NCBI GenBank assembly: GCA_016209885.1
Contig: JACQVF010000023.1
Coordinates: 1-64,000 of the forward strand
Reading direction: 5' to 3'
Length of the DNA: 64,000 bases
DNA from: Gemmatimonadota bacterium
GTDB taxonomy: Bacteria; Gemmatimonadota; Gemmatimonadetes; Longimicrobiales; Gaopeijiaceae
The notes beneath the pieces are model-generated. The model made no database searches, was not told the DNA's origin, and saw nothing but the letters and a program-made list of their open reading frames with translations. The translations under genes were made by a program, and so were the position numbers. The number at the start of each line of letters is the position of its first letter. The first letter of the stretch is position 1. Shown in pieces: positions 48,358 through 54,498 of the stretch.

Positions 48358-50595
48358 GTGTGGAAACAGGTGGAAGGCTCTAGCACCGCGCAGCGCTGGT
48401 CCACGCGGGCGCCGTGGGTCTGCGGGTTGACCGTCGTCCTGGCGACGGTCGGTGTGCGGCCGGTCTCTGCGGCCCAGGAGAGCCGGGGGCTCTACCAGAT
48501 CAGGGCGGTGCGGGTGGATGAGGGCCCGGTGCTCGACGGCGTGCTGGACGAGGCCGTCTGGCAAACGGCCGCCGTGATCGACGAGTTCATCCAGCAGGAG
48601 CCCGCGGAAGGAGCGCCTGCGACCGAACGCACCGAGGTGTGGGTGCTCCACGACGAACGCAACCTGTACGTGGCGATGCGCGCGTTCGACTCGCTGCCGG
48701 ATGGGGTCATCGCCACCGAAATGCGGCGTGACTCGGACCGGCTCCTGGAGGAGGACAACTTCCAGATCATCCTCGATACCTTCAATGACTCGCGCTCGGC
48801 GTACATGTTCGTCACAAGCCCCCTCGGCGCGAAGCTCGATCAACAAGTGTTCGAGGAGGGCGAAGGTGGGCGCCGGGGGATTTCATCCAACATCAACCGG
48901 GACTGGGACGGTGTCTGGCACGTGTCGGCGCGTCGGACGCCGAACGGCTGGACGGCGGAGATCGCGATCCCGATGGTCACGCTCCGCTTTCCGGACGCGG
49001 AGACTCAGGACTGGGGCATCAACTTCATGCGGAACATCCGGCGCAAGAACGAGCAGGTGTTCTGGGCGCCGATTCCGAAGGCATACAGCCTGACGCGCGT
49101 CAGCCTGGCCGGCAGCTTGATCGGCCTGCGGTCGCTCTCCCGGGGACGCGATCTACGCATCAAGCCGTTTCTCGTTGGCGGCGGCCGCCGTGTGCTCTCC
49201 AGCGGCGACGCGGACAACTCGGTGCAGCGGGACATGGGGCTGGATGTGAAGTACGGTGTGAGCGCGGGACTCAATCTCGACGTGACCGTCAACACCGATT
49301 TCGCGCAGGCCGAAGTGGACGACGAGCGGGCCAAGCTGACCCGGTTTGCGTTGTTCTTCCCGGAAAAGCGCGAGTTCTTCCTCGAGAACGCCGTGCAGTT
49401 CAATGTCGGCACGACGGCCTCGTTCGACCGCCTGGCTGACCTATTCTTCAGCCGGCGGATCGGGTTGTCGGAGACGGGCGCGCACGTTCCGATCCTCGGC
49501 GGGGCGCGGCTGTCGGGGAAGGTGGGCCGACACAACCTCGCCGTGATGGACATCCAGACCGATGAGGCGTTCGGTCGACCCGGCGAGAACTTCCTCGTGG
49601 CGCGGTACAGCCGTGACGTCTTTGCGCGGTCGAAGGTCGGCGGGATCTTCATCAACAAGGAGGCGACGGGCGGCGGCCATTTCAATCGGACGTCTGCCGC
49701 CGACATGACGCTGGCCCTCCACCCGAGCCTGACGGTCAACGGCTTCGTCGCCAAGACGTCGACACCGGGTGTCTCGGACGGGCAGTTCGGCGGCCACCTG
49801 AGGGCCGGCTGGCTGAACCGCGCCTGGAACATCTACGGGGAGTACACGGACCTCCAGGACAACTTCAACGCGGAAGTAGGTTTCGTGCCGCGACGCGGGA
49901 TTCGCACGAGCAAGTTCCACATCGAACGCAACCCGCGACCGGGGCGATTCGGCATCCGGGTGCTCGAGCCGATGGTCAACATCACCTACACGACCGACCA
50001 GGACAATCGGCTGTTGACGCGGCGGATTCACCAGATGCTCGGCACCCGGTTGGAGAACGGCGCCTACATCAACATCTGGTACAACGACTACTTCGAGCAG
50101 CTCGACGAGCCGTTTGCGGTGCAGGGCGACGTGGTGATTGCCCCCGGCGCCTATCGGTTCGGCGAATGGCGGTTCTCGTTTAGCAGTGACCCGTCGCGCC
50201 GGCTCTATCACAGCGTGTCGTATTCGCCGCAGACGTTCTTCGACGGCACGCGCACGGACATCGACCTGCGGCTGGGCGTTCGCGCGACCAGCCAACTGGC
50301 GACGGAAGTGGGGTATTCGCGGAACGCCGTCGACCTGCCTGCCGGCGCGTTCACCGTGGACATTGGGTCAATACGGCTCGATTACGCGGTGTCTCCCAAC
50401 ATGACGCTGCGCGCCCTCACCCAGTACAACTCGTCGAGCCACCAGTGGAGCACGAGCGCGCGGTTCAACTTCATCTATCGCCCCGGAAGCGATCTCTACA
50501 TCGTCTATGACGAGGTGCGTCGGGATGTGCCCGGTCTGGCCGGGTTTCGGGATCGCCAGCTCATTCTGAAATTCACCTATCTGCTCTCTCGGTAG
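48358..50595 (+). CDS. DUF5916 outer-membrane protein with CBM9-like domain
   Basis: A 745-residue exported protein. The signal spans about residues 20-39 (VCGLTVVLATVGVRPVSAAQ). A CBM9-like carbohydrate-binding domain (RVDEGPVLDGVLDEAVWQTA to about 220) leads into a DUF5916 barrel: ALFFPEKREFFLENAVQF, LFFSRRIGL and the terminal strands ending QLILKFTYLLSR. These proteins are abundant in Bacteroidota and Gemmatimonadota and are thought to sit in the outer membrane, handling carbohydrates or peptides; the role is not proven. The start is GTG 48358 with GGAGG 12 nt upstream. Confidence 0.88.
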   Translation: MWKQVEGSSTAQRWSTRAPWVCGLTVVLATVGVRPVSAAQESRGLYQIRAVRVDEGPVLDGVLDEAVWQTAAVIDEFIQQEPAEGAPATERTEVWVLHDERNLYVAMRAFDSLPDGVIATEMRRDSDRLLEEDNFQIILDTFNDSRSAYMFVTSPLGAKLDQQVFEEGEGGRRGISSNINRDWDGVWHVSARRTPNGWTAEIAIPMVTLRFPDAETQDWGINFMRNIRRKNEQVFWAPIPKAYSLTRVSLAGSLIGLRSLSRGRDLRIKPFLVGGGRRVLSSGDADNSVQRDMGLDVKYGVSAGLNLDVTVNTDFAQAEVDDERAKLTRFALFFPEKREFFLENAVQFNVGTTASFDRLADLFFSRRIGLSETGAHVPILGGARLSGKVGRHNLAVMDIQTDEAFGRPGENFLVARYSRDVFARSKVGGIFINKEATGGGHFNRTSAADMTLALHPSLTVNGFVAKTSTPGVSDGQFGGHLRAGWLNRAWNIYGEYTDLQDNFNAEVGFVPRRGIRTSKFHIERNPRPGRFGIRVLEPMVNITYTTDQDNRLLTRRIHQMLGTRLENGAYINIWYNDYFEQLDEPFAVQGDVVIAPGAYRFGEWRFSFSSDPSRRLYHSVSYSPQTFFDGTRTDIDLRLGVRATSQLATEVGYSRNAVDLPAGAFTVDIGSIRLDYAVSPNMTLRALTQYNSSSHQWSTSARFNFIYRPGSDLYIVYDEVRRDVPGLAGFRDRQLILKFTYLLSR

Positions 50596-50599
50596 ACCG

Positions 50600-50738
50600 A
50601 GCAGCGGACGAGCCGCTCGATCTTGGCCAGCAGTACGAGGTGCGAGCGCTCGTCTCGCGCCAGCACAAGAAACAGGATATCCGTCTTCCGTCCGTGGAGC
50701 GGGCCGAACGCCACGGGCTCGGCGGTGCGGGTCAGCGC
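50600..50738 (-). pseudogene. PTS EIIA (PtsN-like), C-terminal fragment
   Basis: The minus strand reads ALTRTAEPVAFGPLHGRKTDI followed by LFLVLARDERSHLVLLAKIERL, the end of PtsN-type EIIA domains. The part upstream with the phosphorylated His does not read through in one frame; only scraps such as GEGGDAL follow. It is convergent with the DUF5916 gene. The family is clear, the gene broken. Confidence 0.5.
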
Positions 50739-50894
50739 GACTATGTGGGCGGCATCGCTTGCTGCGGGGGGAGGGAACGACCCTTACACAGAGCATCGCC
50801 ACCTTCTCCGGGCCGCGCATCCGCGTGGTCCGGTGCTGACGTCCGCCAGGTGCACCCCGGCTTCGTCATGTGGGGGAGCAGGCTCGGAGCTGTC
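50739..50894. other. Short stretch with nothing clear
   Basis: Together with the PtsN-like fragment this makes about 300 bases without an intact gene between the DUF5916 and protease genes. The N-terminal part of the lost PtsN-like gene may lie here in scrambled form. I see nothing else. Confidence 0.4.
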
Positions 50895-51911
50895 CTACAA
50901 GTTCGGGCAGCGTGATCGAAGCAATTCGGTATCGGCGGGCTGGATGCGGGGTACTACACCGGATGAGCGCGCGTGACGGAACTCCTCGCTCATCACGGTG
51001 CCCGGCACCGCAGTATGGCCCAGGCCCAGCGCATGGCCCAATTCGTGGGCGAGGATGCGTAGCAGCTCGTTCGGACCGTCGAACCGATAGATCCGGATTT
51101 CGCGGCTGACCGAAACGATGCGTCCGTTCTGCGTGCGGACCGCTTCGCGGTAGCCGCCCGACTCCACGCGGGTGGTTGGGAACGCCTCCTCCGCCGCGTC
51201 GCGCTGCCGCTGGTGCTCTTCCATTTTCCGGCCGAAGCGCTCCCGTTCGTCCAGGAACTCTCGCTGCAAGGCTTCGAGCTCCCGCTGCTGCTCGGTCAAT
51301 TCCAGGCGCTCCGCTTCGAGCGCTCGTTCGGCCGCATGGAGCTCCGCACGCGCCTCGGCAGGAGCGCCTCCCCCCTCGTTCCAGCCACGTACGATCGCGT
51401 TATGGCTGGTGACCCGCTGCTGGAGGTCGCGCACCCGATGAGCGTAGTCGGTTTGCACTCGCGAAAGGCGTTCGCTCAGCGCGTCCAGCTCCGCCCGCCA
51501 CGCCTCCAGCCTTTCGCTGACCTTGTCGGACTCTTCCTCGACACGCCGCCGCTCCCTTGTCCGCGCCTGGCGTTCGTCATATACGAAGCGGATGGGAGAA
51601 CCCGCAATGGAGTCGTGGGCAAAGAGAGGGCGGCCCACGGCCTCCTCCCAGAGGGCGGCCGCTTGCTGCAGCGCGTGTGTGGCCTGGGCGGTGCTCAGGC
51701 CGAACTCCTCGTCGACCCGTGCGATCCGCCAGGTGAGCGGGACCGCGCAGGCAACCGTAGAACCATCCGGTCGCTCCTGGAGACCGCGAACATGGCCAGA
51801 ACCGGCAAGCGGGTCCTCGGGGAGAGAGCGGCCGGGCTGCCCCACCAGCAGCCAGGCCAGAAAGCCGATGACCGAAAGAATCGCCGCGAAACCCGCGAAT
51901 CGGATTCTCAT
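50895..51911 (-). CDS. Matrixin-like zinc metalloprotease with long internal coiled coil
   Basis: A 338-residue exported or anchored protein. The N-terminal hydrophobic segment (FAGFAAILSVIGFLAWLLVG) is a signal or anchor. A matrixin-like start follows (VPLTWRIARVDEEFGLSTAQATHALQQAAALWEEAVG in pieces). A coiled coil of about 130 residues (about 115-245, rich in E, R, Q) is inserted before the active site. The zinc motif HELGHALGLGH is at 289-299 with the Met-turn GTVM (Met307). ATG 51911 is preferred; another ATG lies four codons upstream. The coiled coil inside the catalytic domain is unusual. Substrate unknown. Confidence 0.78.
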   Translation of the reverse strand: MRIRFAGFAAILSVIGFLAWLLVGQPGRSLPEDPLAGSGHVRGLQERPDGSTVACAVPLTWRIARVDEEFGLSTAQATHALQQAAALWEEAVGRPLFAHDSIAGSPIRFVYDERQARTRERRRVEEESDKVSERLEAWRAELDALSERLSRVQTDYAHRVRDLQQRVTSHNAIVRGWNEGGGAPAEARAELHAAERALEAERLELTEQQRELEALQREFLDERERFGRKMEEHQRQRDAAEEAFPTTRVESGGYREAVRTQNGRIVSVSREIRIYRFDGPNELLRILAHELGHALGLGHTAVPGTVMSEEFRHARSSGVVPRIQPADTELLRSRCPNL

Positions 51912-52200
51912 GACGCGGTACCATGCTACAAGCGAGGAGAGCTGCGGGCGTCCCAAGTCTATCCCGTCGGTCTCAACGTCCACAAGCCTGGGTGCGCGTG
52001 AGCCTGCAGGACAACCATAGCGGCAAGAGTTGGGGGCCATCGCTCCTTCCACTCCCGGAGGAACGAAAAGAGCGTTGTGCGTTTCGGTGCTGCTGAGTAT
52101 TGTTTCGGCATTCTCGCAGAACGGGGAGCTGGCCGGCCCCGCGGGGGTGTTCGACGGCCGGACGGCCGCATGAAGCCTTAGACCCGTGGCCAAGGAATTG

Positions 52201-53040
52201 ATGACGCCACCGATGCGAGAGGGAGTTCCGGGGGAACGCCGGGTCCACAGCGCCAACGATGAGTTCAAGGCGCGGTGGGAGGAGTGTCTGGCTTGGTCGA
52301 CGCTGGTTGCCGTGGCCGCGCATGCCGCGGTTTTCGCGTTGTCGCCGAGCTGGCACACATGGCGCGTGCTGACCGAGCCGCCGCTGGAGCTTCTGCAACT
52401 AGGGCGGACCTCCGGGCTCGAAGCCGGCTCGAGTCGCGGAGACCCGCCGTCCGCGGCGGTGCCGGCGGCCGAAAACTCCGCTCTCGAGGACCGCCTCGAA
52501 GGCGTGGAGGTCGAGATTGCTACGCAGTCGGGGCTCCTGCGTCGCCGCCTTCTCGGCGAGGGCGCTCCCGTGCCCATGATCACGGAGCCCGAGCCCGTGA
52601 GCGCGAACGATCCTTCCCCTGCGACGGACGAAGATCCTGCCGCTTTGGGCGGTGCCGCCTCGACCACGGACCACCCGAACTCGCTGGGATCAGGTGAGCT
52701 GGACCGGGAACGCCTGTCGTCCGTTCGCCCCGAACTTGCGTTTATCCCGCCTTCCGTCTGGGTGGTGCTCCGAAACTCACCCCAGGTCGTGAGCTTCATG
52801 AGGAGCGTCTATTCGCGGGGCCTCGACCCCGAGGCGAGCGGAACAGTCATCGTGGCGCTTTGGGTCGATGAGAAGGGCTCCGTCGAGTGGGCCGAGGTTG
52901 CCGAGTCGAGTGGACGGGCGGACCTGGACGAGATCGTCCTGGCGCTGTTCAACGAGGTCGTGGACTTCAGGCCCGCCCGCGATCAGGGCGTTCCTGTGCC
53001 GACCACCGCGTTGTTCTCGATCACGTTCCCCTGGTTCTAG
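52201..53040 (+). CDS. TonB-like protein with C-terminal TonB domain
   Basis: A 279-residue protein: a cytoplasmic N-terminus, one TM helix (CLAWSTLVAVAAHAAVFALS, about 29-48), an acidic/Pro/Ser linker, and a C-terminal TonB-type domain (GTVIVALWVDEKGSVEWAEVAESSG ... DFRPARDQGVPVPTTALFSI, in pieces). TonB couples inner-membrane energy to outer-membrane receptors; here no ExbB/ExbD is adjacent. ATG 52201 is chosen because AAGGAA sits 5 nt upstream; GTG 52186 is the alternative. It precedes the TPR lipoprotein by 81 bp. Confidence 0.75.
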   Translation: MTPPMREGVPGERRVHSANDEFKARWEECLAWSTLVAVAAHAAVFALSPSWHTWRVLTEPPLELLQLGRTSGLEAGSSRGDPPSAAVPAAENSALEDRLEGVEVEIATQSGLLRRRLLGEGAPVPMITEPEPVSANDPSPATDEDPAALGGAASTTDHPNSLGSGELDRERLSSVRPELAFIPPSVWVVLRNSPQVVSFMRSVYSRGLDPEASGTVIVALWVDEKGSVEWAEVAESSGRADLDEIVLALFNEVVDFRPARDQGVPVPTTALFSITFPWF

Positions 53041-53121: not shown

Positions 53122-54498
53122 ATGAGGCGCGCGGGCAGAACGGTCCTTGCGCTCGCGGCGGGCCTGGTATTGGGCGGTTGCGCCGCGGGGGGCGCGGGTA
53201 CGCGCGCACCCGTCGTCTCGCCGACCGGGATCGTCTACCCGCCCGGTACGCCGCCCGTCCAGACCCGGTTTTCGCAGACCGCGGTGCTCTACCTCCGCCA
53301 GGGACAGGTCGACCGAGCACTTGCGCAGGCGCTGGAGGGCATCGAATCCGACCCAGAGAATCCCGTCCACTCCTTTCTCGCGGGTTCGGCGCACGCCCGA
53401 CTCAAGCAGTACGCGGAGGCAGACTCGATGTTTTCCCAGGCACAGGGGCTCTACCCTGCCTACGAGCTGGACATCGAGCCGCAGCGCGAGGCCGCATGGG
53501 CCGAGGCGTTCAACGCGGGCCTGGAAGCGTACGCGGCGGGCGACGTGCAGGGGACGATCCGCGCCTGGCAGCAAGCAACGCTCATCTACGATCTGCGGCC
53601 CGAGGCCCACCGAAATCTCGCGACCCTGCTTTCCCAAGAGGGGAGGTACGCGGAAGCCATAGACGTCTACCAGCGGGGCCTGGTGGGACTGGAGAAACGG
53701 CCCGCGACTCGAGTGCTTCTGGAGCGGGATCTGGAGGAGCGTAATCAGGCGGGGGCCAGCATGGAGGAGAATCTGGTTCAGCTCCTCCTCTTCACGAACC
53801 GGTTCGCCGAGGCTGAGCCCTTACTGAGGCGCCAACTTGAGCGCGATCCCGCGAACGTCCAGGTGCAGAGCGACCTGGCCTCAGCTCTATCCGGTCAGGG
53901 GCGGCCCGAGGAAGCGAGGAAGATCTATGCAGCCCTGCTCTCCGAGGCGAGCCTGCAGGCCACCGAGCTCTTCAAGATCGGCATCTCGCTGTTTCGTTCG
54001 TCCGACTTCATGGAGGCGAGCGAGGCGTTCCGGCGGCTGACCGACCTCCAGCCGAACTCCCGCGACGCGTGGTTCAACTATGCGAATTCGCTCTTCGCCG
54101 CCGAGGCGTGGAAGTCGCTCGCAACAGTTGGCGATCGGCTGGTCGAACTGGATCCTCTCAACGAGAAGGCCGCGCTGATTGTGGCGCGTGCATATCTGGA
54201 AATCGGCGACGAAGAAGCTGCCGTCCGTGGTGTGAAGCGAATGGAAGCCGCTCCCGTACACCTCGCGGAGTTGCAGATGCGACCTTCCGAAGCGCGAACG
54301 AGCGTACAGGGGCGTGTGATCGGCAACAAGGCAGAGCCCGGAGCCCCGGTGCGTCTCCGCTTCACGTTCTACGGTGACGCCGAAGCGCTCGGCACTGAGA
54401 CGCTCACGGTACCGGCTCCACCCTCGGGCGAGAGTGCGATGTTCGTGGTTTCGTTCGGGATGCGAGCCACCGCGTACCGGTACGAGCTGGTCACCTGA
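53122..54498 (+). CDS. TPR-repeat lipoprotein
   Basis: A 458-residue predicted lipoprotein (signal VLALAAGLVLGGC, Cys20). Six or more tetratricopeptide-type helical repeats fill about residues 50-380 (for example QGQVDRALAQALEGIESDPENP, EGRYAEAIDVYQRGL, QGRPEEARKIYAALL). A C-terminal beta domain follows (GAPVRLRFTFYGDAEALGTETLTVPAP in pieces). It is probably a periplasmic scaffold anchored to the outer membrane, paired with the TonB-like protein upstream. Confidence 0.85.
   Translation: MRRAGRTVLALAAGLVLGGCAAGGAGTRAPVVSPTGIVYPPGTPPVQTRFSQTAVLYLRQGQVDRALAQALEGIESDPENPVHSFLAGSAHARLKQYAEADSMFSQAQGLYPAYELDIEPQREAAWAEAFNAGLEAYAAGDVQGTIRAWQQATLIYDLRPEAHRNLATLLSQEGRYAEAIDVYQRGLVGLEKRPATRVLLERDLEERNQAGASMEENLVQLLLFTNRFAEAEPLLRRQLERDPANVQVQSDLASALSGQGRPEEARKIYAALLSEASLQATELFKIGISLFRSSDFMEASEAFRRLTDLQPNSRDAWFNYANSLFAAEAWKSLATVGDRLVELDPLNEKAALIVARAYLEIGDEEAAVRGVKRMEAAPVHLAELQMRPSEARTSVQGRVIGNKAEPGAPVRLRFTFYGDAEALGTETLTVPAPPSGESAMFVVSFGMRATAYRYELVT

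What the first reader, a model, noticed from the sequence alone, without database searches (positions are those of the whole stretch)
50895..51911. Matrixin-type protease with a 130-residue coiled coil before HExxH
The zinc motif and Met-turn are at the C-terminus, and a long coiled coil separates them from the matrixin-like start. I do not know this architecture; it may place the active site at a distance from the membrane or oligomerise it.
Basis: partly seen in the sequence, partly recalled or inferred. Interest (0 to 1): 0.55.

Follow-up and report, generated by a model that had tools for sequence, protein, structure and literature searches.

The report
Matrixin protease with coiled-coil hairpin arm
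This bacterial zinc protease has the predicted fold of human matrix metalloproteinases, but a long two-helix arm takes the place of one of its loops; relatives keep, shorten, lengthen or lack that arm, so its job could be tested directly.

Summary
In detail: a 338-residue protein (50895..51911, minus) carries HELGHALGLGH (289-299), the Met-turn Met307 and about 131 helical residues (113-243) between the start of a matrixin domain and the zinc site. It is not a linear spacer. AlphaFold predicts one matrixin domain (best solved match MMP-11, Z 14.2) with an antiparallel helical hairpin inserted between strands 3 and 4, where MMPs carry the S-loop. Sequence evidence agrees: heptad cores mirror about the tip and most length changes affect both arms. 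Two relatives in one genus lack the hairpin; the one tested matches Pfam Peptidase_M10 nearly end to end. The family is widespread (Gemmatimonadota, Patescibacteria, Moraxellaceae, Thioalkalivibrio and others); I found no paper on it in the library searched. Two terminal cysteines occur together or not at all, suggesting a disulfide. In 24 distinct Gemmatimonadota loci the gene lies head to head with a TonB gene (23 followed by a TPR gene), whatever the hairpin length. Most likely an inner-membrane-anchored, periplasm-facing protease whose hairpin is a docking arm. Anatomy is well supported by prediction and alignment; activity, docking role and substrate are inferred.

The parts
50895..51911 (-). 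Gene of the matrixin with hairpin, 338 aa, stop included
51843..51896 (-). N-terminal hydrophobic helix, residues 6-23, probably an uncleaved membrane anchor (no A-x-A-like site seen by eye)
   Evidence: helix; 19-residue hydropathy up to 2.4; topology inferred
51747..51749 (-). Cys55, probable disulfide partner of Cys335
   Evidence: both present in 103 of 122, both absent in 17, one alone only in 2 rows cut at contig ends
51576..51746 (-). First half of the matrixin domain, residues 56-112 (strands 1-3 and helix A)
51183..51575 (-). Antiparallel coiled-coil hairpin, residues 113-243, inserted between strands 3 and 4
51360..51404 (-). Hairpin tip, residues 170-184, HNxxVxxWNxxGGAP-like
51090..51158 (-). 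Strands after the hairpin, residues 252-274
51015..51047 (-). Zinc motif HELGHALGLGH, residues 289-299
50991..50993 (-). Met-turn methionine, Met307
   Evidence: Met in 114 of 115 rows, the other a gap in a truncated row
50907..50939 (-). C-terminal helix and Cys335, residues 325-335
52186..53040 (+). Divergent neighbour, TonB C-terminal domain protein
   Evidence: PF03544, 39 bits; divergent in 24 distinct loci
53122..54498 (+). TPR protein following TonB
   Evidence: follows TonB in 23 of 24 distinct loci

Best explanation
The gene encodes a matrixin (MMP-type zinc metalloprotease), probably anchored in the inner membrane by its N-terminal helix and facing the periplasm. The catalytic domain is complete. 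Between strands 3 and 4, the position of the MMP S-loop, the chain runs out as one helix, turns at a conserved tip and returns as a second helix, so the hairpin projects from the domain and does not displace the active site; at 1.5 A per residue it would be roughly 90-100 A long. A likely disulfide (Cys55-Cys335) ties the segment before strand 1 to the last helix. Most likely working: the arm is a docking or substrate-selecting element, and the protease processes a protein of the envelope machinery represented by the neighbouring TonB/TPR genes. Supported here by prediction or alignment: domain, hairpin, insertion site, length series, spread, TonB/TPR synteny. Inferred: topology, disulfide, activity, docking role, substrate. 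Anatomy about 0.9, docking role about 0.4.
For: Hairpin and complete domain in AlphaFold (pLDDT 88.7, hairpin blocks mostly 92-99); MMP-11 Z 14.2 over 137 residues. Arm 1 exactly 65 residues in 96 of 122; most other lengths change in both arms. Mirrored heptads. The arm-less relative L038 matches PF00413 positions 9-155 of 159 and MMP-11 at E 7.5e-7. Conserved columns at base (Arg114, Gln115) and tip (Trp177, Asn178). Head-to-head with TonB in 24 distinct loci; TonB in 12 of 16 genomes with the matrixin and 1 of 43 without.
Against: No activity or interaction was measured. Hairpin-less and short-hairpin members keep the TonB linkage, so the arm is not needed for that linkage. Members of other Gemmatimonadota branches and the other phyla have no such TonB neighbour, and the TonB-TPR pair also occurs without the matrixin beside it. 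The hairpin is less conserved (1.47 bits per column) than the core (2.2), and the tip only slightly above the hairpin mean (1.78); the tip motif may be only a turn. The angle of hairpin to domain was not measured.
Confidence: 0.55

Rival explanations
1. The hairpin is an oligomerisation device: hairpins of two or more protomers pack into a bundle and the protease works as a dimer or higher oligomer.
For: Long heptad-patterned helices with conserved hydrophobic core columns; conserved Asn-rich heptad columns 213, 220, 227, 234 in arm 2.
Against: The mirrored cores are satisfied within one chain. No multimer was modelled.
Confidence: 0.2
2. The hairpin is a gate or latch: it leans over the cleft and keeps the enzyme, which has no recognisable prodomain, inactive until a partner moves it.
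For: It leaves the domain at the S-loop position, which leads into the substrate-binding edge strand in MMPs (S-loop between s3 and s4, and the bulge-edge strand, passages of PMC1885970); only about 31 residues separate the anchor helix from Cys55.
Against: Members without the hairpin keep the full zinc site and would be ungated. Orientation not measured.
Confidence: 0.12
3. The hairpin is a tolerated insertion without a role of its own.
For: Less conserved than the core; shortened or absent in several Gemmatimonadota lineages.
Against: Arm 1 has one length in 96 of 122 members from several phyla, with conserved columns at base and tip; a neutral insertion should drift.
Confidence: 0.13

Closest known systems
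Matrixins / MMP catalytic domains (Pfam PF00413; MMP-11, MMP-1, MMP-13)
   Same: Zinc motif, Met-turn, strand and helix order; Z 14.2 to MMP-11 over 137 residues; Pfam match over cut-off
   Different: About 131-residue hairpin at the S-loop position; no invariant His between strand 3 and the zinc motif, so the MMP structural-zinc ligands (His, Asp, His, His) are not conserved; no recognisable prodomain; probable Cys55-Cys335 disulfide; N-terminal membrane helix. MMP-2 and MMP-9 also carry an insertion, but at another place (recalled).
Karilysin (bacterial MMP-like protease of Tannerella forsythia)
   Same: Bacterial MMP-like catalytic domain; Z 13.6 for 4r3v
   Different: The aligned karilysin chains are 166-179 residues long, with no room for such an arm
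'Matrixin family metalloprotease' of Acinetobacter (so named in CP040042.1)
   Same: Same family by profile and hairpin at the same place
   Different: No Cys55/Cys335 pair in the 17 Moraxellaceae rows; one to three tandem copies in a locus with dnaK, not TonB

Membership tests
Matrixin (MMP-type, Pfam PF00413) | Match over the Pfam curated cut-off | tested here: met
   35.6 bits against 24
Matrixin (MMP-type, Pfam PF00413) | HExxHxxGxxH zinc motif | tested here: met
   HELGHALGLGH at 289; the four residues intact in 113 of 122 rows
Matrixin (MMP-type, Pfam PF00413) | Met-turn methionine | tested here: met
   Met307; 114 of 115 rows
Matrixin (MMP-type, Pfam PF00413) | MMP catalytic fold | tested here: met
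   Predicted model only: Z 14.2 to MMP-11; arm-less relative E 7.5e-7. Foldseek on the full model had no match at E <= 0.001
Matrixin (MMP-type, Pfam PF00413) | Structural zinc site of animal MMPs in and around the S-loop (not required of all matrixins, recalled) | tested here: not met
   No invariant or nearly invariant His between residues 112 and 289; MMP-1 ligands His149, Asp151, His164, His177
Matrixin (MMP-type, Pfam PF00413) | Cysteine-switch prodomain of animal MMPs (recalled) | tested here: not met
   About 31 residues between the anchor helix and Cys55, low confidence and largely without helix
Matrixin (MMP-type, Pfam PF00413) | Zinc-dependent proteolysis | not testable with these tools
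   No assay
Archaemetzincin (M54) | HExxHxxGxxHCx4CxMx17CxxC with four cysteines | tested here: not met
   Thr follows the third His and Cys335 is the only cysteine after the motif; PF07998 12.6 bits under 24.4; motif from the abstract of PMC3427221
Peptidase M66 (PF10462) | Match over the Pfam curated cut-off | tested here: not met
   17.4 bits under 20.6

The most novel reading that the evidence does not exclude
The hairpin is a length-tuned reach arm in the cell envelope: an inner-membrane matrixin uses a roughly 100 A coiled-coil arm to find a partner or substrate of the TonB/TPR machinery across the periplasm, and lineages have re-tuned or dropped the arm in matched steps in both helices. 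That would be a spatially addressed MMP-type protease in bacteria.
Probability: 0.15. Interest if true: 0.7.

Novelty: new variant of a known kind. Interest (0 to 1): 0.42.

Why it matters
It is a widespread and, as far as my searches show, uncharacterised branch of the matrixins with an arm that none of the MMP or karilysin structures listed shows. Two features make its function testable: nature supplies full, shortened, extended and arm-less versions, some within one genus, and a conserved divergent TonB-TPR locus suggests where to look for the substrate.

Tried and rejected
Linear spacer: rejected, because both ends of the coil join neighbouring strands of one domain and arm-less relatives exist. 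Chance motif or false ORF: rejected, given 54% identity over full length in another genus and 122 distinct family sequences. Phage origin: no match in the phage collection; in viral contigs 3 loci whose matches cover only residues 252/253-307; no viral structure match at E <= 0.001. Conserved ABC-transporter neighbour: the 18-locus cluster lay at scattered distances and orientations, so I dropped it as a common gene. That clustering also gave some antisense ORFs the matrixin label; the recount replaces it. The first genome-contig scan, with the single protein, confirmed no relative; the scan with the alignment did. One partial row, L087, was dropped before the counts on 122. The tree has 148 core columns for 122 rows, 54 of 119 inner branches are open, and its root says nothing about gain or loss.

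Literature: search listings seen; passages read from PMC1885970. None of the listed titles concerns this family, but the library holds only open-licence papers, so absence from print is not shown.

Full report
Observation. The minus-strand gene 51911-50895 encodes 338 residues. Pfam assigns Peptidase_M10 to residues 280-319 (35.6 bits, cut-off 24). HELGHALGLGH stands at 289-299 and Met307 follows. In front lie about 131 residues of charged helix (113-243), and before them residues 56-112, which resemble the first half of an MMP domain.

What the coil is. AlphaFold with a 20-row family alignment predicts strands 59-66, 97-99 and 105-109, then helix 113-179, a short turn, helix 185-243, then strands 252-261 and 264-274 and the zinc-motif helix 280-294 (mean pLDDT 88.7, pTM 0.74). 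The coil is thus an antiparallel hairpin inserted in one domain. VIA-align places the domain with MMP-11 (Z 14.2, 2.7 A, 137 residues), other MMPs and karilysin. Foldseek on the same model gave no match at E <= 0.001. In MMP-1 the S-loop lies between strands s3 and s4 and packs against metal sites (passages of PMC1885970); by strand order the hairpin occupies that position. The angle between hairpin and domain was not measured.

Support that does not rest on the model. I collected 122 distinct family sequences, one partial row dropped. In the 99 members with an insert of 140-165 residues, hydrophobic columns recur every seven residues in both arms; the 3.5-residue period was reached by none of 10,000 shuffles for either arm. 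Mirroring the arms gives correlations of 0.77-0.81 at position sums 354, 361 and 368, and lower, mostly negative values (at most 0.36) at the sums between. For example 142, 149, 156, 163 and 170 mirror 219, 212, 205, 198 and 191. Arm 1 (residue 112 to 178) is exactly 65 residues in 96 of 122. Among the 26 others, about 22-23 change both arms in the same direction; two (51/71 and 54/71) shorten only arm 1 and one (68/73) lengthens only arm 1. Arm lengths depend on where the alignment puts the tip, which is unsure in a few short members.

A natural deletion series. L016/L038 (genome G003) and L155 (G385), both of genus code g4, have no hairpin. On a tree of core columns they group with the full-hairpin L046 and with L146 (SH-aLRT 99). 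As most of the family carries the hairpin this looks like a recent loss, though the unrooted tree cannot prove direction. L038 matches PF00413 from profile position 9 to 155 of 159 in one stretch (46.4 bits), while the window protein matches only 105-144. The L038 model (pLDDT 78.1, pTM 0.68) has the same strand order and finds MMP-11 at E 7.5e-7, with 128 PDB matches at E <= 0.001. Seven sequences have a stub (25/23), two 30/34, four 51/57, one is longer (79/86) and one much longer (107/119).

Other features. Cys55 and Cys335 are both present in 103 of 122 rows and both absent in 17, all of them Moraxellaceae; two rows have only Cys55, and both are cut at contig ends. This suggests a disulfide. 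In active MMP-1 the N-terminus is held to Asp232 by a salt bridge; a Cys55-Cys335 bond might do a similar job, but that is my inference. The H, E, H, H set is intact in 113 of 122. Nine rows are damaged, two of them copies of one protein, so pseudo-enzymes exist.

Spread. In 59 genomes drawn from the window's relatives, 18 have a match at E <= 0.001; by my reading of that table 16 of these are clear (E <= 1e-20), all in the window's own family. In 395 genomes of the phylum, 199 match at E <= 0.001, but most of these cover only the zinc motif; by hand count 37 reach E < 1e-20, 36 of them in the same family. The genome-contig scan confirmed 98 loci, of which 80 were kept: Gemmatimonadota, many Patescibacteria, Acinetobacter and Moraxella, Thioalkalivibrio, Balneolota and relatives, Elusimicrobiota and deltaproteobacterial (Myxococcota-labelled) bins.

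Neighbours. The gene lies head to head with a TonB_C protein (52186-53040), which is followed by a TPR protein. Of 119 loci examined, all with a matrixin, 30 hold a TonB homologue. The TPR gene follows in 23; in L047 the contig ends first. Arm-less and short-arm members are among them. In the 59 genomes, strong TonB homologues occur in 12 of 16 with the matrixin and 1 of 43 without; the TPR protein in 13 of 16 and 2 of 43. Relatedness inflates this contrast. The pair also exists without the matrixin beside it, and Gemmatimonadota members of other branches have no TonB nearby. Moraxellaceae members sit in one to three tandem copies in a locus that also holds dnaK and purine genes.

Mechanism. 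I favour a membrane-anchored, periplasm-facing matrixin with a docking arm, acting on a protein of the TonB/TPR system. I put the anatomy at about 0.9 and the docking role at about 0.4. Oligomerisation, gating and a neutral insertion are the rivals.

Novelty. Annotation exists: one A. baumannii record names the protein 'matrixin family metalloprotease'. I found no paper on the family in the searches. I rate it a new variant of a known kind.

Noticed in passing
window 50577-50780, minus strand: A 67-residue stretch resembles the middle-to-late part of a PTS EIIA (PtsN-like) domain, 18.7 bits and below the Pfam cut-off of 27; perhaps a gene remnant beside the 3' end of the matrixin.
   Followed up: partly
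L035/L013, L036/L014, L027/L019, L051, L052, L076, L144, L161: Family members with damaged zinc motifs (RQYT, HVHH, HEHY, HERH, HEHE, REHD in place of H, E, H, H), most with the hairpin kept: natural pseudo-enzymes.
   Followed up: no
L064, L075, L084, L107, L116: Acinetobacter loci with two or three tandem paralogues of the family in a locus that also holds dnaK, grpE, purK and purE.
   Followed up: no
L162 (genome G235): A member from another family of the class with a much longer hairpin, arms of about 107 and 119 residues; long branch, place in the tree unsure.
   Followed up: no
L061 / L160: A contig labelled Gammaproteobacteria whose matrixin nests among Gemmatimonadota short-arm members with the same TonB-TPR neighbours; probably a mislabelled bin.
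   Followed up: no
window 48358-50595, plus strand: Convergent neighbour with DUF5916 and a CBM9-like domain.
   Followed up: no
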